Part shown: piece after piece, positions 10,467-17,629 of the stretch
Numbering within the stretch: position 1 is the first letter of the stretch
Layout: every line of letters starts with the position of its first letter
The notes under the pieces: model-generated
Database searches by the model: none
What the model was told of the DNA's origin: nothing
Seen by the model: only the letters and a program-made list of their open reading frames with translations
DNA from: Hydrotalea sp.
Lineage (GTDB): Bacteria > Bacteroidota > Bacteroidia > Chitinophagales > Chitinophagaceae
Reading direction: 5' to 3'
Length of the DNA stretch: 64,000 nt
NCBI GenBank assembly: GCA_027364735.1
Contig: DAHXOT010000044.1
Coordinates: 62,001 to 126,000, forward strand
Made by a program: the position numbers and the translations under genes

Positions 10467-10920
10467 TAAGCAACTATTTACCTTACTTATTATTAAACTC
10501 AGATTAATGGTAACTATTTTAACCTTATTTGCTAATACATTGGAACAAACAAATATAAACTTAAATTATTTCAGTAACGATAAAGAAGAAAGAAGTAAGA
10601 AGTTTTAAAAAAAGGGATTAAAAGTATGGCTTTTCGTTAACGCACAATTTTTTTAAAGAAGCACAGCGTATCCCTATTTAAACAGTGGCGGTATTTGAAA
10701 ATATATTGTTCAACTAAAATTGCTGAATACGATTAAAAATAAATGACTGATTAACTTCCGCCAAGCCGACAATTGCTTATATGTTTTTGTTGCCTGCCGT
10801 AATTAAATTCTTTGTTTTGGTTAGTCAAAATATATCCTAAAACAATTCTTTCAATTTAAAACTACCCTTGACAAATATCCCGAAGCGATTAAATTGTATT
10901 ACAAAAAAGAAATAGTTATT
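10467..10920. other. 454-bp non-coding stretch between recA terminator and the defence island
   Basis: I see no supported gene. A short frame around 10829-10915 encodes a run containing LDKYPEAIKLYYKKE with no start and an early end; it could be a gene fragment. The base composition and scattered stops fit decayed DNA at the edge of an insertion. Confidence 0.4.
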
Positions 10921-11193
10921 TTATTGAGATTGATTGTGATTTAATAGAACCTCACTTGGAAGTGGTAAATTAAGGTCTTTTGCAATATTTGAAATTCCTC
11001 TTTTTATAATAGCAAATTCTGGAGTCATGTTACTTGTTGCAACTACGAGGTATTTGTCTTTGTCAATAAATTCTTTTGTCAATGAAATAATTTTATAATC
11101 AAGTGTCAACAAAATATTTCGTCCAATTATTTTATCATAGTAAAATTTAATTAAAATGTTTGCCTCCTTTTCAGTAAATACTTTTTCATTCAT
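10921..11193 (-). CDS. Small hypothetical protein (90 aa)
   Basis: The frame encodes a 90-residue soluble protein with no signal peptide and no motif I recognise. It begins MNEKVFTEKEANILIKFYY and ends PSEVLLNHNQSQ. Charged and hydrophobic residues are distributed as in a folded alpha/beta protein, which supports it being real. It lies isolated between recA and the C-protein gene, on the opposite strand from both, in non-coding surroundings. It may be cargo of the island. No function is assigned. Confidence 0.5.
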   Translation of the reverse strand: MNEKVFTEKEANILIKFYYDKIIGRNILLTLDYKIISLTKEFIDKDKYLVVATSNMTPEFAIIKRGISNIAKDLNLPLPSEVLLNHNQSQ

Positions 11194-11523
11194 ACAATGT
11201 ATTTAAAATATTAAAGAATAAAAACTAATGGCAGACAACTGCTTGATTACCGAATATCCCTTCCCTTTAAAATTCCATTAATCTTATGTTACATGCGACC
11301 TGCTGTTCATATAGAGCAATACCCATAATTTCAGAACGAATACGAAGGTAATTAAAAGCGATTTATATTCAATGCGATGTCGGTGCAAGTTTGCAGACAG
11401 CCGGTTCGTTGACAGTATTAACTTTTTGTGGGTGGGGGAAATTTTTAAATTCACTTTTTTTCTTAGGTAGAAGATTGCAAGCCCCTTTTATTTTCTGTAT
11501 TGATTTTTCTATCGCATTTTTAA
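11194..11523. other. Non-coding stretch upstream of the C-protein promoter
   Basis: About 330 bp without a supported gene. The - strand frame covering 11369-11656 overlaps the C-protein start and operators and looks like a shadow. The motif CAAGTTTGCAG at 11386 recurs once at 17433, at the other end of the island, which is suggestive but short. Confidence 0.35.
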
Positions 11524-11540
11524 TATTCCAAAACGGCATA
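11524..11540. promoter_or_regulatory. C-protein operator (C-box), promoter-distal copy
   Basis: The 17-bp sequence TATTCCAAAACGGCATA is an imperfect palindrome with half-sites TATTCC and GGCATA around AAAAC. It is the first of two copies in front of the C gene and lies about 38 bp before the likely transcription start. This position fits the activating site of C-protein systems. The same motif recurs at 11559 (inverted) and 14287. Confidence 0.75.
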
Positions 11541-11558
11541 GCCAAATAACCTCTGTAA

Positions 11559-11575
11559 TATTGCGTTTTGGAATA
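11559..11575. promoter_or_regulatory. C-protein operator (C-box), promoter-proximal copy
   Basis: The 17-bp sequence TATTGCGTTTTGGAATA is the same palindrome in inverse orientation (reverse complement TATTCC-AAAAC-GCAATA). Its centre is 35 bp from the first copy and it ends 8 bp before the C start codon at 11584. It overlaps a -7-like element TAATATTG (11556-11563), so binding here would block transcription. Confidence 0.75.
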
Positions 11576-11583
11576 CAAATTTA

Positions 11584-11820
11584 ATGGCGAAAACTTCATA
11601 CATACAAGATAGAAAATCACTTTGTGCTTTGCTTGCCCAAGCAAGAGAAGAAGCAAACCTCACTCAAAAACAAGTTGCTGATACTGGCGTTATCAGTCAA
11701 AGTGAAATTTCAAAAATTGAAAACGGTCAACGAAAAGTTGAGTATGTTGTTCTTTTAAAACTTGCCGAACTGTATGGTAAAAACATCAACTTTTTTATTC
11801 CAATGAAAAAAACAAAATGA
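11584..11820 (+). CDS. Restriction-modification controller (C) protein, XRE/HTH
   Basis: The 78-residue protein is one Cro/CI-type helix-turn-helix domain, the size of known R-M controller proteins. The recognition region reads LTQKQVADTGVISQSEISKIENGQR. C proteins bind paired operators to activate and then limit transcription of themselves and the restriction gene, which delays restriction until the host DNA is methylated. The gene sits 9 bp upstream of the restriction enzyme gene and has two palindromic operator copies in its promoter. This arrangement, with the motif also in front of the methyltransferase, supports the controller role. A plain XRE regulator or antitoxin is the alternative. 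Confidence 0.88.
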   Translation: MAKTSYIQDRKSLCALLAQAREEANLTQKQVADTGVISQSEISKIENGQRKVEYVVLLKLAELYGKNINFFIPMKKTK

Positions 11821-11829
11821 TGCTTTACT

Positions 11830-12528
11830 ATGGCTGGAACTAACACCGAAAAAATTATTACTGGACTCAAAGAAAAAATTCTTGAAGTAGTCAATCCAAA
11901 GTTAGCTGCTATTACAGAAGGAACAACTGATGTTGCGATTGCTTGGAAGAAAATGCAAGATGTCACTGCAACTGAAATACGAAAATTGTTAGCAAAGCAT
12001 TTAACTCAAACAGAAATTTCTTCTCCTACTGCCAAAAGCACTTACCCTGATATTAAGATTGTAAATTCAGAAGGTCAATTTGCAATCGATATAAAGGTGA
12101 ATGAAAATTCAAAAGATCCTTGGTTTGATATGGCTCGCCTTGATACAATGGTGACTGATAGAATTGAAAAGTATGTTGAAGAATGGGAATTCGTAATCAG
12201 ATTTGATAGTAGCAATGGAAAATTTCTCAAAGCATATTTCAATTTATTCAGAGAAGTTGTTGGAATAAGAACTGAATGTAATGGAATAAAATATAGACCT
12301 TATGACGGAAAAGTAAGACCTAAAACTTGGGCTGATTTTGACAACAACAAAGTTTATTGGGAGACAAAAGAAAAATTTCTTGAAGGAATTGAAAGGTCTC
12401 TGAAACATCGTTGGAAAGAAAATATCAAAGCACATTTGGTTCCGAAGTTGTCAGCAAAAGAAAGAGAAGAATTCAAAAAGTTGTTTGACGAAAACGGTGG
12501 TGAGGATTTAGCTTTGTTCGGAGAATAA
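11830..12528 (+). CDS. Type II restriction endonuclease, PD-(D/E)xK fold, EcoRV-like active site
   Basis: The 232-residue protein is of typical type II enzyme size. The catalytic motif is readable: STYPDIKIV with Pro73-Asp74, then FAIDIKV with Asp87-Ile88-Lys89. This PD...DIK pattern closely resembles EcoRV (YPDF...IAIDIK), including the Ile between Asp and Lys. Overall I could not match it to a named enzyme, so the recognition site is unknown. The helical C-terminus (EGIERSLKHRWKENIKAH) may contribute to dimerisation or DNA binding. It follows the C protein by 9 bp and its last 21 bases overlap tail-to-tail with the methyltransferase gene, which identifies it as the restriction partner. Confidence 0.85.
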   Translation: MAGTNTEKIITGLKEKILEVVNPKLAAITEGTTDVAIAWKKMQDVTATEIRKLLAKHLTQTEISSPTAKSTYPDIKIVNSEGQFAIDIKVNENSKDPWFDMARLDTMVTDRIEKYVEEWEFVIRFDSSNGKFLKAYFNLFREVVGIRTECNGIKYRPYDGKVRPKTWADFDNNKVYWETKEKFLEGIERSLKHRWKENIKAHLVPKLSAKEREEFKKLFDENGGEDLALFGE

Positions 12529-14253
12529 ATTATGCGCTTCAATTTTTCTTCTCGTTGCTCCTTGCAATTTATTAAAGTTTCCTTGATAGTGTTCAACTAA
12601 TCCAAAAGTATTTGGAGAAACTTCTTTCAATTCATCTAACGAAAATATTTTGCGATTGTCAAAGCAAAGTGTCATGTATTCTTTTTCAATTTGCTTTCGT
12701 GGAGTTCCGTTTATTTTTTTCTGTGCAATGGATTCTCTTTCGTAATAGAGTAAACCTGTCAAGTCGGTTTGAATATTTGCGAGATTCTTTTCTGCAATGT
12801 CAACATACCTTTTATCAAGTTCTGTGATGATGTAATTTCTATTCAAAAGTTTTGCTCCGATTGCTGTTGTGCCTGAACCTCCGAATGGGTCAAAGATTAA
12901 ATCACCTTCATCAGAAAATATTTTGATGATTCGTTCCATTAGTTTAGTTGGCAACTGACACGGATGTTGGTCTCTGTCTTTCTTGTGTTTTATTCTGTGA
13001 ACATCTCTCCAAACATCAGTAAGCAATTCTTTTTTGTCGTCACCTATTTTTTTTCTTTTTGTGATGCAAGAGTTCCGCAAACAATATTCTCTTGAAGTTA
13101 TTTCTCTAACTGTTTGCAGATTTACTTTTGCGTTGGCTCCTGGTTTACTGAAATAAAGAAGTGAATAATGTGCAGGGAGTAATTTTCCTGCTGGTGTTGA
13201 AAGAGCATCCCACACAATCCAATTTTGGAAAATCATTTTATCAGCCAAAAAATTGAAGTGGTAAACTGACCACTTAGGGATATTTAAAACGAATAATGCC
13301 CCGCCTGGTTTAAGGTTGTTATACATTCCTAAAAGCCACTCGTTGCACCAGTCAATATATTTTCGTTCTTCCAAATCATCTTGGTAAATGGAATAATTTT
13401 TTGCAAGGTTGTATGGTGGGTCTGCAAATGCAACATCAAAAACTCCGTGAGGATTTTTTTGATGCAACTGGTTTAAAAAGTCAATGCAACTTTGATGAAC
13501 AACTTTATTTTTCTCAACCGCAGTGGTTTTTCCATTGAGAGAAATTTTTTGTTCGCTTTCAGGAACTGAAATATTTGCTTTTACTTTTGTTTGGTTTACT
13601 TGCAAAACATTTTTTCCTTCTGAAAGCAAAGCCAAAATTCTTTCTGTCAATGCAACTGGAATGTTGTTCGCTTTCTTTATTGGAGTGTCATTGAAATTCC
13701 AAACATCTGACAATGCACTTCCCAAAGGATTTAACATGTGTTTTTTTCCTCCCCAATCTTTTGTCATGTTTCCACAAGCAATACAATCAGAATAAGGAAC
13801 TCTTACAAACTTTGTATTGATGTCAAAGGGTGTTGTGTTCTTTTTTGATTTTGATTTCAAATACATCAGCAAACCGATGTGAGCATTTGGCAATTCGTTT
13901 TTAATTTCTTCTGCTTTGAACTCACATGAAATCCAATACTTGAAAAGGTATGAATACTCGTCTTGCTTTTTGTCACTCAAATATTCTCCAAAGTAGGAGA
14001 GGTAGTTTGGTAAACCGTAAACGAAAATTAAACCTCCGTCTTTGAGTTGCAAACAACATTTGTCAATCAATAAAATTGTTTGCTGAATAAAATTATCTGC
14101 TTCTCTTATGATTGAATGTTTGCCGATTTGGTCTGCACCAAAATTTGTTTTTAAAATAACTGCATCAAACAAAGTATCAGATTTCAGGGTAGAAAGTTTC
14201 GTTTCCGAAACTTCTGTGAAGTTGGCTAACTGATGCAAAGGATTCTTTTTCAT
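12508..14253 (-). CDS. Type II DNA methyltransferase (beta-group, amino-MTase) with degenerate N-terminal MTase half
   Basis: The 581-residue protein methylates an exocyclic amino group (N6-adenine or N4-cytosine). In the C-terminal half the catalytic motif IV DPPY (278-281) precedes the AdoMet-binding motif I FDPFGGSGTT (454-463), the beta-group order. The N-terminal 220 residues repeat the same architecture in decayed form. FDAVILKTNFGAD (29-41) stands where FDVAFADPPYNLA (272-284) is. LKDGGLIFVYGLPNY parallels LKPGGALFVLNIPKW, and LSDVWNF parallels LTDVWRD. No motif I is present there. The gene is convergent with the restriction enzyme and has a C-box in front. It is last in a row with the GmrSD-like and second methyltransferase genes. 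A tail of about 80 residues follows the catalytic core. Confidence 0.92.
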   Translation of the reverse strand: MKKNPLHQLANFTEVSETKLSTLKSDTLFDAVILKTNFGADQIGKHSIIREADNFIQQTILLIDKCCLQLKDGGLIFVYGLPNYLSYFGEYLSDKKQDEYSYLFKYWISCEFKAEEIKNELPNAHIGLLMYLKSKSKKNTTPFDINTKFVRVPYSDCIACGNMTKDWGGKKHMLNPLGSALSDVWNFNDTPIKKANNIPVALTERILALLSEGKNVLQVNQTKVKANISVPESEQKISLNGKTTAVEKNKVVHQSCIDFLNQLHQKNPHGVFDVAFADPPYNLAKNYSIYQDDLEERKYIDWCNEWLLGMYNNLKPGGALFVLNIPKWSVYHFNFLADKMIFQNWIVWDALSTPAGKLLPAHYSLLYFSKPGANAKVNLQTVREITSREYCLRNSCITKRKKIGDDKKELLTDVWRDVHRIKHKKDRDQHPCQLPTKLMERIIKIFSDEGDLIFDPFGGSGTTAIGAKLLNRNYIITELDKRYVDIAEKNLANIQTDLTGLLYYERESIAQKKINGTPRKQIEKEYMTLCFDNRKIFSLDELKEVSPNTFGLVEHYQGNFNKLQGATRRKIEAHNLFSEQS

Positions 14254-14273
14254 TCTTCTTTTTGTTGTCGGTG

Positions 14274-14281
14274 CAAATATA
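14274..14281 (-). promoter_or_regulatory. -7 promoter element of the R-M methyltransferase gene
   Basis: On the - strand the sequence is TATATTTG, a perfect match to the Bacteroidota -7 consensus TAnnTTTG, 20 bp before the ATG at 14253. The C-box at 14287-14303 lies immediately upstream, between this element and where a -33 element should be. Confidence 0.55.
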
Positions 14282-14286
14282 ACAAA

Positions 14287-14303
14287 TATTCCAAAACGGA
14301 ATA
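14287..14303. promoter_or_regulatory. C-protein operator (C-box) of the methyltransferase promoter
   Basis: TATTCCAAAACGGAATA is the best-formed copy of the motif, with perfectly complementary half-sites TATTCC and GGAATA around AAAAC. It lies 33 bp before the methyltransferase start codon and just upstream of its -7 element. A single site in this position would let the C protein repress the methyltransferase gene, as described for the Esp1396I system. Confidence 0.75.
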
Positions 14304-14321
14304 GTAAAAATTTTTCAACAA

Positions 14322-16016
14322 TTATTTATTCAACTTGAGGTTCCAAGTTTTTACAGCAATATCAGCAAGGAACTCTTGCCTTTTAATAATATTTTCTAAA
14401 CTCCATTCAGAGTATTTTTCTGCTATGTCTTTCGTGATTTGTATATCGGATGTTTTATAAACTTCTACCTTTTTCTCAAAGGATTCACTTTTTAAATCGC
14501 TGTTTTTCTTTTTGGACATTACGGTAAGGTTGCCTAATCTGTTCTTGAACTCTTCAACTTCCTCATTAGAAAAATTTGTCCATTCTCCTTCTTTGGGTTT
14601 CTTTGGTAATATGTGTTCCAAGTCAACAATATTAGGGTCGCTATCAACAATGCACTCTGGTGTTGTTCCTCCTCCTCTATATTGACTTTCAATTGCTCGC
14701 AAATAATATCTGGCAAACTTTTCTTTTCCAACTGTAGCGGTTAATAATTTATCCTTAAATGTTTGGTCAGATGGAATATTTTTTAATGCAGACCTGAAAT
14801 CACTTGAGGTCGTTAATTCACTTTTAAAAACTCGTTTAGCCAATTCTGTATATTCATTTTCCAATGCTCCACCACCAAGAGAGCCAGTAATCAAATTTCT
14901 GACAACCCAAGTTACTATCAACTTTAATGATAACTCAACTTCTTTTTTATTTGTGAACCTTTTTAAAATTGACAATGCTAAAGGTCTGTAAGGTTCAATT
15001 TCTAAGTAGTTTAAAGTTTCAATATACTTTTTGCTATTCTCTGTATGTTCTGCCCAGTATTTGTCATTATGATTGAAGATTGCCAAATATAATTTCGTGT
15101 CGTCATTAAGTTCTTTGACAAAATCCCTTACATCAGTTGCGGATTTCTTTGCGTCACTTATTGCTTTGTAAAGCTCTTTATTCTTTTCTCTTGTAAGTCC
15201 ATATCTTGATGACCAAAAGTGTTTGATGTAAGTTAGAACATTTGCCTCTCCAAGTTCTTCTTCAATTTTTGCGGTCATTTCAATCCACATTACCTGAACC
15301 TCGTCCAAATAATCCGCTGCCCTACTGAATAAGTAATTCTTTAATAAATCTGTTTGAGCAAGTATTAACCCTCTGTCATTTAATGTTTCAAAGAGTGTAA
15401 ACGCATTTGATTCACTCGGAACTATTATTGAAACAACTTTAAGTTTATCGTGAATAAAATCTTTCCAGTTGTGAAGTTGTGCTTCAGATAGAGTTGAAAT
15501 AGCAGTAACTTTTTTCTTAGCGACTTCTTTCGCTTTAATAATTCTATGGTGAGATTCTTTAACGGCTGGCTCTTCACTCTTGTTGTCAATAATAAACTTC
15601 TGAAAAAAGGTTCTGTCTTGATTTCCAAGTTTAAGCTTTCCAACATTTTGTTCATTTCGTGTATCATAATTACTGATATAATCATTTTGAATTGAATTTG
15701 CCGACTGTTCTTTTGCTTTGCTTCTAAAATAATCTCTAACTGCTGATAGAAAAATAACTATAGTTGTGATTCTCTGTTGTCCGTCAACGATTTCCAATTC
15801 ATAAGTTCCTTCTTTTTTTGATAGGACAACAGTTCCCAAAAAATATTCGCTGTCATTGTTGTCAATCGCTTTAGATAAATCGGATAACAATGTTTCAACA
15901 TGTCGGTTGTCTTTATCAGTTTCCCATTTATATGACCTTTGATAGTTGGGAACGGTAAATTGATGTTCCTTTATCAATTTACCAATTCCATTTATCTCAA
16001 ATTTAATTTCACTCAT
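14322..16016 (-). CDS. DUF262 and DUF1524 protein, GmrSD-like nuclease
   Basis: The 564-residue protein has an N-terminal DUF262 (ParB-like NTPase fold) domain with PNYQRSYKW (23-31) and the signature VDGQQRITT (77-85). At the C-terminus is a DUF1524 His-Me/HNH nuclease motif, DLEHILPKK (His about 468), followed by RLGNLTVMSKKKNS. The two-domain order is that of GmrSD and related type IV restriction proteins (also BrxU, SspE), which degrade modified phage DNA with nucleotide-dependent activation. It sits between two DNA methyltransferase genes, 20 bp after the upstream one and 68 bp before the next, so the three are probably one operon. Its position suggests a role in the same defence system; which modification it senses is not known. 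Confidence 0.9.
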   Translation of the reverse strand: MSEIKFEINGIGKLIKEHQFTVPNYQRSYKWETDKDNRHVETLLSDLSKAIDNNDSEYFLGTVVLSKKEGTYELEIVDGQQRITTIVIFLSAVRDYFRSKAKEQSANSIQNDYISNYDTRNEQNVGKLKLGNQDRTFFQKFIIDNKSEEPAVKESHHRIIKAKEVAKKKVTAISTLSEAQLHNWKDFIHDKLKVVSIIVPSESNAFTLFETLNDRGLILAQTDLLKNYLFSRAADYLDEVQVMWIEMTAKIEEELGEANVLTYIKHFWSSRYGLTREKNKELYKAISDAKKSATDVRDFVKELNDDTKLYLAIFNHNDKYWAEHTENSKKYIETLNYLEIEPYRPLALSILKRFTNKKEVELSLKLIVTWVVRNLITGSLGGGALENEYTELAKRVFKSELTTSSDFRSALKNIPSDQTFKDKLLTATVGKEKFARYYLRAIESQYRGGGTTPECIVDSDPNIVDLEHILPKKPKEGEWTNFSNEEVEEFKNRLGNLTVMSKKKNSDLKSESFEKKVEVYKTSDIQITKDIAEKYSEWSLENIIKRQEFLADIAVKTWNLKLNK

Positions 16017-16036
16017 GTGGTTAATTTTTGATGTTG

Positions 16037-17278
16037 TTATTGCTTTTCAAAAAATAATATGTGTTCATCTTTCATTGTATTTCTCATTCCTTTGATTGGC
16101 TTGATAATCGTCTTCACCAATTTCAGTTTATACTTGCTGCCTGATTCAATGATTTTGTCTTCCAAGCGGATGCCTCCTGTTTGGTTAGTGTTTGAACCAA
16201 TTATCATCACGAAATATTTTCCTTTCTTCAAAACTCTGCTGACTTCTTTGCAGTAAGTTTCCATGTCTGCAAAATAATTTTTCAATTTCTCGTCTTTGCT
16301 TTTGCCTTTCAACCCTACCATTTTGTCTCGTAGAATTTTTGTATCAAAACCTAAATATTCCAATTGATCTTTATCGTTCTCTGCATAATCAATTGCAAAA
16401 GAATAAGGTGGCGAAGTGATTACACAATCAACAGAATTTTTTTTCAGTTCAATATCTAATGCTTCAGATTTTTTCAACACTTGAACAACGCCTAAAGTAT
16501 TCGGATTATAATTCGGGTTTGTAATGAGATTAAAAACCGTTTCCTTGTATCGCTTCAAAACTTTTGGAAAAAGTTGTTTGTGAGTTGACTTCTCAACTCG
16601 CTTTGCGTAACCCATTGCATCAAGGAATGCAAGTAATGATAACTGATATACTCTTAATTCTTCGATGCTGAACATTCTTTTCATCTGATAAATTATTCCT
16701 TTCGTGCTGAAAAATTCAAACAGTTCCGTTGGTTTTTCGGTGTGCTTCAACAAAATTTCTTTGTCAATTCGTAACGCTTCAAACTTTGTTGTTGTCATGA
16801 ATTGACAAAACGGACTTACATCAATCGCTAAAGAATTTATTCCCATTAGTGCCGCTTCAACATTCAATGTTCCGCTTCCACACATCGGGTCTAAAATAGT
16901 TTCACTCTTTTTGATTCCCAAAATATTTATCAATCCTTTGATAAGTTGAGGATGAAATTTTCCTCTGTATGGAAACAAACTGTGAGTAGCGTACCCAGTG
17001 GCAAACTGTCCGTTCTCAAAATAGTTTTGAGTTGCTGATGAACGGATGTCAACAAAGGCTTCGGGTTGTTCTGAATAAAGCAAGAAATGATTCGAAGGCT
17101 TACCCTCAAAAGATTTGAAGAATGCTGTGCGTTCTAAGAATTCGCTCTTGTCTATTATTTTTTTTTCAAGATATGCAAGTTCAAGTTCAAATAGTTCTGT
17201 TACAGATGGAAGCAACTCCTCCCCATTATTAAACAGAAGGCTTGTAATTGAATTGGATTTGTAAAATTTTCTTTTCAC
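16037..17278 (-). CDS. Site-specific DNA methyltransferase (N4-cytosine or N6-adenine)
   Basis: The 413-residue protein carries FPYRGKFHPQLI (102-113), AdoMet motif I LDPMCGSGTLNVEA (129-142), and catalytic motif IV ITSPPYSF (287-294). TSPPY is frequent in N4-cytosine enzymes, but N6-adenine is possible. The order motif I then IV differs from the other methyltransferase of the island, so they are unrelated by recent duplication. The start is GTG (17278); no in-frame ATG precedes the conserved part. It is the first gene of the - strand series leading to the GmrSD-like nuclease. Its target site is unknown, and it could serve the nuclease rather than the EcoRV-like enzyme. Confidence 0.88.
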   Translation of the reverse strand: MKRKFYKSNSITSLLFNNGEELLPSVTELFELELAYLEKKIIDKSEFLERTAFFKSFEGKPSNHFLLYSEQPEAFVDIRSSATQNYFENGQFATGYATHSLFPYRGKFHPQLIKGLINILGIKKSETILDPMCGSGTLNVEAALMGINSLAIDVSPFCQFMTTTKFEALRIDKEILLKHTEKPTELFEFFSTKGIIYQMKRMFSIEELRVYQLSLLAFLDAMGYAKRVEKSTHKQLFPKVLKRYKETVFNLITNPNYNPNTLGVVQVLKKSEALDIELKKNSVDCVITSPPYSFAIDYAENDKDQLEYLGFDTKILRDKMVGLKGKSKDEKLKNYFADMETYCKEVSRVLKKGKYFVMIIGSNTNQTGGIRLEDKIIESGSKYKLKLVKTIIKPIKGMRNTMKDEHILFFEKQ

Positions 17279-17629
17279 TGTTCCTTGTGAGAATTATTCA
17301 CTACAAAGTAAGTAAATACAATTGAAGATTTTGCTACGAAACCGAAAAGGCGTTGGAGAAAATACTCTTTCCTTTTTTAGCGTTGGCAAAAAAATCATAC
17401 CGAAACGTTAGCGTTCAAAACGATAAGATTCAAGTTTGCAGGGACTAATAGGGTTGCTGTAACAACAGAGAGCAGCAGCTAACATATTCCAAAAAGAAAT
17501 TTTAAAAAATCGTTACGCCCTTATCTCCAATAAAACAATAATATCTTCTAAAAAACGTTATAAATACTTATTACAGATATTCTTAGTTAGCTATTTCCGT
17601 TTATGAAAACACTTGGAAAAACATTAGTT
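17279..17629. other. 351-bp intergenic region at the right edge of the island
   Basis: Contains the promoters of the leftward methyltransferase and the rightward barrel gene. At 17485-17501 lies TATTCCAAAAAGAAATT, which matches the C-box in its left half and spacer only. No RNA gene or repeat is convincing. Confidence 0.35.

What the first reader, a model, noticed from the sequence alone, without database searches (positions are those of the whole stretch)
12508..17278. GmrSD-like nuclease embedded between two DNA methyltransferases
Seen: genes for a TSPPY methyltransferase, a DUF262/DUF1524 protein and a DPPY methyltransferase follow on one strand with 20- and 68-bp gaps, convergent to C and R. 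Known: DUF262/DUF1524 proteins (GmrSD, BrxU, SspE) restrict modified DNA or sense self-modification. Inferred: the 16037-17278 methyltransferase plus the nuclease could be a two-gene modification-dependent system merged with a type II R-M system, or the methyl mark could regulate the nuclease as phosphorothioate does SspE. This is the best candidate for an undescribed defence arrangement in the window.
Basis: partly seen in the sequence, partly recalled or inferred. Interest (0 to 1): 0.8.

Follow-up and report, generated by a model that had tools for sequence, protein, structure and literature searches.

The report
GmrSD-like nuclease nested in type-II restriction locus
A bacterium carries a second, different DNA-cutting defence gene tucked between the two DNA-marking genes of an ordinary restriction-modification system, and a viral DNA fragment shows that the same unusual neighbourhood is not a one-off.

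Summary
In detail: M2 (TSPPY, 16037-17278), a DUF262/DUF1524 nuclease (14322-16016) and M1 (DPPY, 12508-14253) lie on the minus strand with 20- and 68-bp gaps, convergent to C and R. All lie in a 7.06-kb island (10476-17531) missing from a sister genome. C, R and M1 look like a C-regulated type II system: C-box-like palindromes precede C and M1, and an R homologue abuts an M1-type gene elsewhere. M2 goes with M1-type methyltransferases: orthologues (57-61%) sit in M2-X-M1' operons (X, a DpnII/BanI-like nuclease) without DUF262 in 7 of 7 intact cellular loci. The nuclease is HEC-06-like GmrSD; in 90 of 103 relatives' loci no R-M gene of my panel lay within two genes. So M2+nuclease as a two-gene system is not supported. 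A random insertion is also unlikely: the nearest relative (47%) lies, split in two, on a viral contig with M2, X and M1'. Best reading: an R-M-embedded type IV-like nuclease, known for type I and Hma loci, here in a type II locus. Gating by M1/M2 methylation, as phosphorothioate gates SspE/DndI (its nearest solved folds), is untested but not excluded.

The parts
10476..17531 (.). island holding all five genes, absent from a same-genus genome (ends as aligned by blastn, within a few bases)
   Evidence: window against G001 contig C2, flanks 95-96% identical, 12 bp in place of 7,056 bp
11524..11540 (.). C-box-like operator 1 (TATTCC-N5-GGAATA, 1 mismatch)
11559..11575 (.). C-box-like operator 2, just before the C start (1 mismatch)
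11584..11820 (+). C: HTH_3 controller-type regulator, 78 aa
   Evidence: PF01381, E 1.3e-14; place and operators
11830..12528 (+). R: putative PD-(D/E)XK type II endonuclease, 232 aa
   Evidence: no family hit; homologue directly before an M1-type methyltransferase in viral contigs L308-L310
12508..14253 (-). M1: DPPY methyltransferase, 581 aa, two MTase-like domains
13603..14199 (-). M1 N-terminal degenerate MTase-like domain (residues 19-217, no DPPY motif)
14287..14303 (.). C-box-like operator 3, exact palindrome, in the gap before M1
   Evidence: only exact copy in the genome as held
14322..16016 (-). HEC-06-like GmrSD nuclease (DUF262 + DUF1524), 564 aa
   Evidence: (PDLC04157 E 4.9e-186)
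16037..17278 (-). M2: TSPPY methyltransferase, 413 aa
17485..17501 (.). weak C-box-like site about 210 bp before M2 (3 of 17 differ from the exact copy); not above genome background

Best explanation
This is a mobile type II restriction-modification cassette (C, R, M1, with M2 as a second methyltransferase) that carries an embedded GmrSD/HEC-06-type nuclease between its two methyltransferase genes. C-R-M1 cuts unmodified invading DNA at its site (inferred); C binds palindromes before C and before M1 and times R and M1 expression (operators seen, binding inferred). The DUF262/DUF1524 protein is a second layer: its N-terminal NTPase/sensor domain detects non-host DNA, most likely DNA with phage base modifications that block R, and licenses the C-terminal His-Me nuclease to nick or cut it (inferred from the family). 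It does not depend on M2 or M1 to work (inferred). Sharing the cassette gives the host cover against both unmodified and modified phages.
For: Family: PADLOC HEC-06 E 4.9e-186 over residues 1-559; GmrSD domains; model pLDDT 88 with DndI, SspE and BrxU chains as the only PDB matches at E 0.001 or better. R-M unit: the sites before C and M1 are the only ones with 0-1 mismatch to the exact copy in the 2.77 Mb held; an R homologue directly precedes an M1-type gene. M2 goes with M1-type genes. Independence: 90 of 103 distinct relatives have no panel R-M gene within two ORFs, and the 13 that do sit in different kinds of locus. HEC-06 is said to function independently and to be antiviral (PMC11411939 and PMC12988326, passages). 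Further nesting in type II loci: D12-DpnII-DUF262-N6N4 methyltransferase in L173 and D12-DpnII-DUF262 in a Rhizobium plasmid.
Against: No activity is shown for any gene. The recurring M2-(X)-DUF262-M1 neighbourhood and the nearest folds (DndI and SspE, both of which read a host mark) would also fit a nuclease tied to the host's own methylation. Several relatives counted as solitary lie near contig ends, the gene panel was small (no m5C methyltransferase) and partly drawn from six of the very loci it then scored. The nucleotide-level reach of the operators is sequence only.
Confidence: 0.6

Rival explanations
1. Methyl-gated nuclease: M1 and/or M2 marks on host DNA are sensed by the DUF262 domain and switch the nuclease, as phosphorothioate does with DndI and SspE. 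The M2-nuclease-M1 gene order would then be a functional unit.
For: M2-(X)-DUF262-M1 neighbourhood in two unrelated records; the two DUF262 are each other's best match among the 103 compared (48.6% and 49.0% for the two viral parts). Best PDB matches are DndI (Z 27.1, 522 aligned, rmsd 6.4) and SspE (Z 23.8, 543 aligned, rmsd 18.4), ahead of BrxU (Z 13.0, 417 aligned, rmsd 16.8). X and the DUF262 N-part share one reading frame on the viral contig.
Against: M2-X-M1' occurs without DUF262 in 7 of 7 intact cellular loci; 90 of 103 relatives of the nuclease have no panel R-M gene near. The M2 tree does not join the window with the viral M2. For phosphorothioate itself: no DndC in the host genome, and Tyr at the DndI Y25 position is in 48 of 103 relatives, so it tells nothing.
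Confidence: 0.2
2. Replacement: the GmrSD-type nuclease took the place of X, the endonuclease that follows M2 in its orthologues, and cuts DNA that lacks the M2/M1 marks (an R-M system with a GmrSD-type nuclease); C-R is a later addition.
For: X directly follows M2 in 8 of 8 intact orthologues (7 cellular, 1 on the viral contig); in the window the nuclease holds that slot.
Against: On the viral contig X and the DUF262 N-part are both present in one frame, and in L173 and L197 a DpnII gene stands beside DUF262, so the nuclease adds to an R rather than replacing it. I recall no GmrSD-family enzyme of this kind that is blocked by base methylation.
Confidence: 0.1
3. Defence-island chance: two unrelated defence modules lie side by side with no functional link, and the viral contig is an assembly artefact.
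For: GmrSD neighbourhoods are generally rich in R-M genes (PMC4619093, passages, type I above all). The viral copy is split and carries HEAT repeats at both breaks.
Against: Two records hold the closest DUF262 pair together with M2 and M1-type genes; 20-bp gap to M2; the set lies in one island.
Confidence: 0.1

Closest known systems
HEC-06 (Hma-embedded candidate, PADLOC PDLC04157; Payne et al. 2024, known here only through citing papers)
   Same: Full-length profile match E 4.9e-186, single GmrSD-like protein, embedded in another defence locus (PMC11411939 and PMC12988326, passages).
   Different: Host locus is a C-controlled type II R-M cassette, not an Hma cluster.
TgvAB of Vibrio cholerae VPI-2 and RloF of Campylobacter (GmrSD-like genes inside type I R-M loci)
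   Same: GmrSD-like gene inside an R-M locus (PMC11411939 and PMC4619093, passages).
   Different: Type I locus; TgvAB needs two proteins; here one protein in a type II locus.
DndI (9JFL) and SspE
   Same: Closest solved folds over the whole chain; DUF262 plus DUF1524.
   Different: Those belong to phosphorothioate systems (PMC11662687, passages); the host genome has no DndC match.
BrxU
   Same: GmrSD family, beside a modification-based system.
   Different: Lower fold match (Z 13.0, 417 aligned); BREX neighbour.
M2-X-M1' type II loci (found here: two methyltransferases and a DpnII/BanI-like nuclease)
   Same: M2 57-61% identical, M1-type methyltransferase downstream.
   Different: No DUF262, single-domain M1', and no match to the window's C or R in the stretches read.

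Membership tests
GmrSD / HEC-06 type IV restriction | DUF262 N-domain with DGQQR and FxxxN | tested here: met
   D78-R82, F209, N213 identical in 20 of 20 aligned
GmrSD / HEC-06 type IV restriction | DUF1524 His-Me nuclease with EHxxP and two Asn | tested here: met
   E467-H468 and N496 in 20 of 20, N505 in 18 of 20 (2 gaps)
GmrSD / HEC-06 type IV restriction | full-length match to HEC-06 profile | tested here: met
   residues 1-559 on 1-556 of 558
GmrSD / HEC-06 type IV restriction | restricts DNA with modified bases | not testable with these tools
   needs a phage assay
C-controlled type II R-M | small HTH C gene before R | tested here: met
C-controlled type II R-M | C-box palindromes before C and a cognate methyltransferase gene | tested here: met
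   (sequence only; binding untested)
C-controlled type II R-M | R is a nuclease that pairs with the methyltransferase type | tested here: inconclusive
   26% identical homologue directly before M1' in three viral contigs that carry the same R; motif PD..DxK read by eye; fold model poor
Type IIS-like system with two methyltransferases | two methyltransferases, one per strand, with one R | tested here: inconclusive
   M2-X-M1' operons fit, but of the 8 M1-type loci that lack M2, five have X-M1' (in L085 M1' looks broken), two a BanI-like R with a two-domain M1, and L078 no R seen
SspE/DndI phosphorothioate sensing | DndC gene in the host genome | tested here: not met
   no TIGR03183 match at E 1e-5 (in 14 control genomes it rang in 4, none over the cut-off); SspD was not searched for
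SspE/DndI phosphorothioate sensing | Tyr at DndI Y25 position | tested here: inconclusive
   present, but in 48 of 103 relatives too
M2 + DUF262 two-gene system | pair occurs without other R-M genes | tested here: not met
   no such pair among the loci examined

The most novel reading that the evidence does not exclude
M2-DUF262-M1 is a methylation-gated analogue of SspBCD-SspE and DndBCDE-DndI: base methylation by M1/M2, not phosphorothioate, is read by the DUF262 domain and keeps the nuclease off self DNA, in some mobile elements with the type II nuclease X linked to it in one frame.
Probability: 0.15. Interest if true: 0.85.

Novelty: new variant of a known kind. Interest (0 to 1): 0.5.

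Why it matters
It extends the nesting of GmrSD-like nucleases from type I R-M, BREX and Hma loci to type II R-M cassettes, with further cases beside DpnII. It offers a small, movable five-gene set in which to test whether a GmrSD-family nuclease reads phage modifications only, or also the host's own methyl marks. It also adds M1-type methyltransferases that pair with several kinds of nuclease, and a candidate C-box.

Tried and rejected
Two-gene M2+DUF262 system: rejected because M2 orthologues pair with X and M1' and no other such pair was found. DUF262 as a random insert: thought unlikely after the viral contig. M2 tree to test co-descent with DUF262: window M2 unplaced, viral M2 sister of L089 (98/99), which lacks DUF262, so shared descent of the pair is not shown. 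Fold of R from one sequence: pLDDT 44, not used. R in plasmids, phages, viral contigs by its own patterns, and 59 and 395 genomes: no match other than itself; found only through the M1' scan. Genome-collection scan with the nuclease alone: nothing. The nuclease at E 1e-60 in 395 phylum genomes: only the own one. Gapped operator pattern over the genome: unusable. Foldseek rows after rank 11 have E above 0.2 and were disregarded. The site before M2 (17485) is not above background (52 matches with up to 3 mismatches genome-wide, 37 for the reversed pattern). Bacteroidota-type promoter motif: one TAnnTTTG before M1, none in the other three upstream stretches, no full match; not used.

Of the 33 places I read the flanks of 15, of 758 plasmid records those of 12, and of 8 genomes those of the 7 that are not the own one. 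One search skipped 9 viral duplicates, leaving 103; L264 among its 13 is a weak hit (E 9e-5), and two near-gene flags (L271 motif only, L272 m5C motif) are not in the 13. L088 is the contig of L072 and is counted once; L098 (broken) is left out of the 7. More distant M2 relatives (about 31-40%: L076, L077, L090-L097) have other neighbours and are not counted as orthologues. The lineage named by PADLOC as Orf5 also matches the nuclease; I did not find out what that name stands for.
Full report
What is there. The minus strand carries M2 (16037-17278), a 564-aa DUF262/DUF1524 protein (14322-16016) and M1 (12508-14253), with gaps of 20 and 68 bp; C (11584-11820) and R (11830-12528) run towards them, and R and M1 overlap by 21 bp. 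Pfam gives GmrSD_N and GmrSD_C for the middle gene and N6_N4_Mtase for both methyltransferases; R has no family.

A movable set. In a genome of the same genus (G001, 86% complete), the end of recA and the stretch that begins at window 17532 are joined by 12 bp, with 95-96% identical flanks; window 10476-17531 is missing. All five genes thus sit in one island of about 7,056 bp. No integrase was recognised there, but besides the five genes only the 90-aa ORF 10921-11193 was searched for families.

C, R and M1 seem to belong together. A palindrome TATTCC-N5-GGAATA lies twice before C (11524-11540, 11559-11575, one mismatch each) and exactly in the gap before M1 (14287-14303) (six matches with up to 3 mismatches in the window, 0.71 expected, none of 100 shuffles reaching six). 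In the 2.77 Mb held these three are the only sites with 0-1 mismatch to the exact copy. A fourth, weak site 210 bp before M2 is at background level. R has no relative but itself in plasmids, phages, or 59 and 395 genomes, but a scan of viral contigs with M1-type proteins found a 233-aa protein 26% identical over residues 40-194 (E about 1e-6 by tblastn against 25 loci; best of 30 shuffled controls 0.077) that directly precedes an M1-type gene in three contigs carrying the same R. By eye both have a PD...DxK pattern.

M1 and M2. M1 has a catalytic domain (about 249-491) and an N-terminal part (19-217) that resembles an MTase domain but lacks DPPY. M2 has five orthologues at 57-61% identity among 395 genomes of the phylum (11 of 395 genomes match at E 1e-12, own included). 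In all five, M2 is followed by X (325-340 aa; Pfam DpnII just over its cut-off, BanI below it) and a single-domain M1'. So 7 of 7 intact cellular loci are M2-X-M1' without DUF262. Of the 8 M1-type loci without M2, five have X-M1' (one with a broken-looking M1'), two a BanI-like R with a two-domain M1, and one, at a contig end, no R seen; X-M1' without M2 is also on several viral contigs. So the need for M2 is not clear; a type IIS-like, two-strand role is likely but not shown.

The nuclease. It matches PADLOC HEC-06 at E 4.9e-186. Papers read in passages say that HEC-06 was found embedded in Hma clusters, acts independently and is antiviral (PMC11411939, PMC12988326); the original preprint is not held and was not seen. 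GmrSD-like genes inside type I loci are in print as TgvAB and RloF (PMC11411939, PMC4619093, passages). The best plasmid hit is 37% identical. I looked at the neighbours of 103 distinct relatives (22 genome, 12 plasmid, 69 viral, after 9 duplicates were skipped): 13 have a gene of my R-M panel within two ORFs, 90 do not. The panel was small, without m5C methyltransferases, and partly drawn from six of those loci. The 13 include type I loci, type IIG-like genes, the viral M1' case and two DpnII cases: L173 with D12-DpnII-DUF262-N6N4 methyltransferase and a Rhizobium plasmid with D12-DpnII-DUF262. Nesting in type II loci thus recurs with different methyltransferases, which speaks against a need for one mark.

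The viral contig. The closest relative found (47% over 149-562) lies on IMG/VR contig 3300003892_000002, 3 bp before an M1' gene. About 6.5 kb away the same contig holds an M2 orthologue (59%) overlapping an ORF in which X (72%) runs in frame into the DUF262 N-part (47% over 1-167), then HEAT repeats. Both parts have the window's protein as best match among 103 compared (48.6% and 49.0%; next best by score 38.4% and 37.5%). It still shows M2, X, DUF262 and M1' together in a second record. The M2 tree does not group the window with this contig, so common descent of the order is possible but not shown.

Structure. A model from 20 sequences (pLDDT 88, pTM 0.72) matches DndI best (Z 27.1, 522 aligned, rmsd 6.4), then SspE (C-part Z 25.2, 342 aligned, rmsd 3.4; whole Z 23.8, 543 aligned, rmsd 18.4) and BrxU (Z 13.0, 417 aligned, rmsd 16.8). 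DndI and SspE read the host's phosphorothioate (PMC11662687, passages). The host has no DndC match (SspD not searched), and Tyr at the DndI Y25 position is in 48 of 103 relatives, so nothing here points to phosphorothioate. It keeps open a sensor of host methyl marks.

Verdict. An R-M cassette with an embedded GmrSD-type nuclease: a new variant of a known kind (type II host locus), with a modest, untested chance of a methyl-gated function. My searches for such a type II case in print were (listings) with passages of PMC12707154 and PMC12839542; I saw none described, but most subscription papers and preprints are not held.

Noticed in passing
12508-14253: M1 joins a degenerate MTase-like domain without DPPY to an active one (27.6% identical over 156 aa, E 1e-7); BanI-like loci L079 and L080 have M1 relatives of similar length (587 and 598 aa). 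It suggests a built-in pseudo-dimer.
   Followed up: partly
L071-L075, L079, L080, L308-L310, L035, L037: M1-type methyltransferases pair with several kinds of nuclease: X (DpnII/BanI-like), BanI-like (distantly related to X), the window's R type and, more distantly (33-37%), BamHI-like ones.
   Followed up: partly
L173:4432-8749 and L197:3743-7614: DUF262 genes directly after DpnII genes in a genome of the window's order and in a Rhizobium plasmid: further type II nesting.
   Followed up: partly
L098:9001-12837: M2 and M1' remnants flank a CfrBI-like R-M cassette, as if one system had replaced another.
   Followed up: partly
L201 and L291 (IMG/VR 3300003892_000002): Viral contig with M2, X in frame with the DUF262 N-part, DUF262 C-part and M1', HEAT repeats at the breaks, and two further methyltransferases with a 453-aa protein between.
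   Followed up: partly
10476-17531: The site next to recA is empty in a same-genus genome; 12 bp there stand in place of the island.
   Followed up: yes
L091-L093: M2-like methyltransferases (33-36%) followed at 0-2 bp by 222-233 aa proteins with a PD..ExK-like pattern and no Pfam family: likely simple type II pairs.
   Followed up: no
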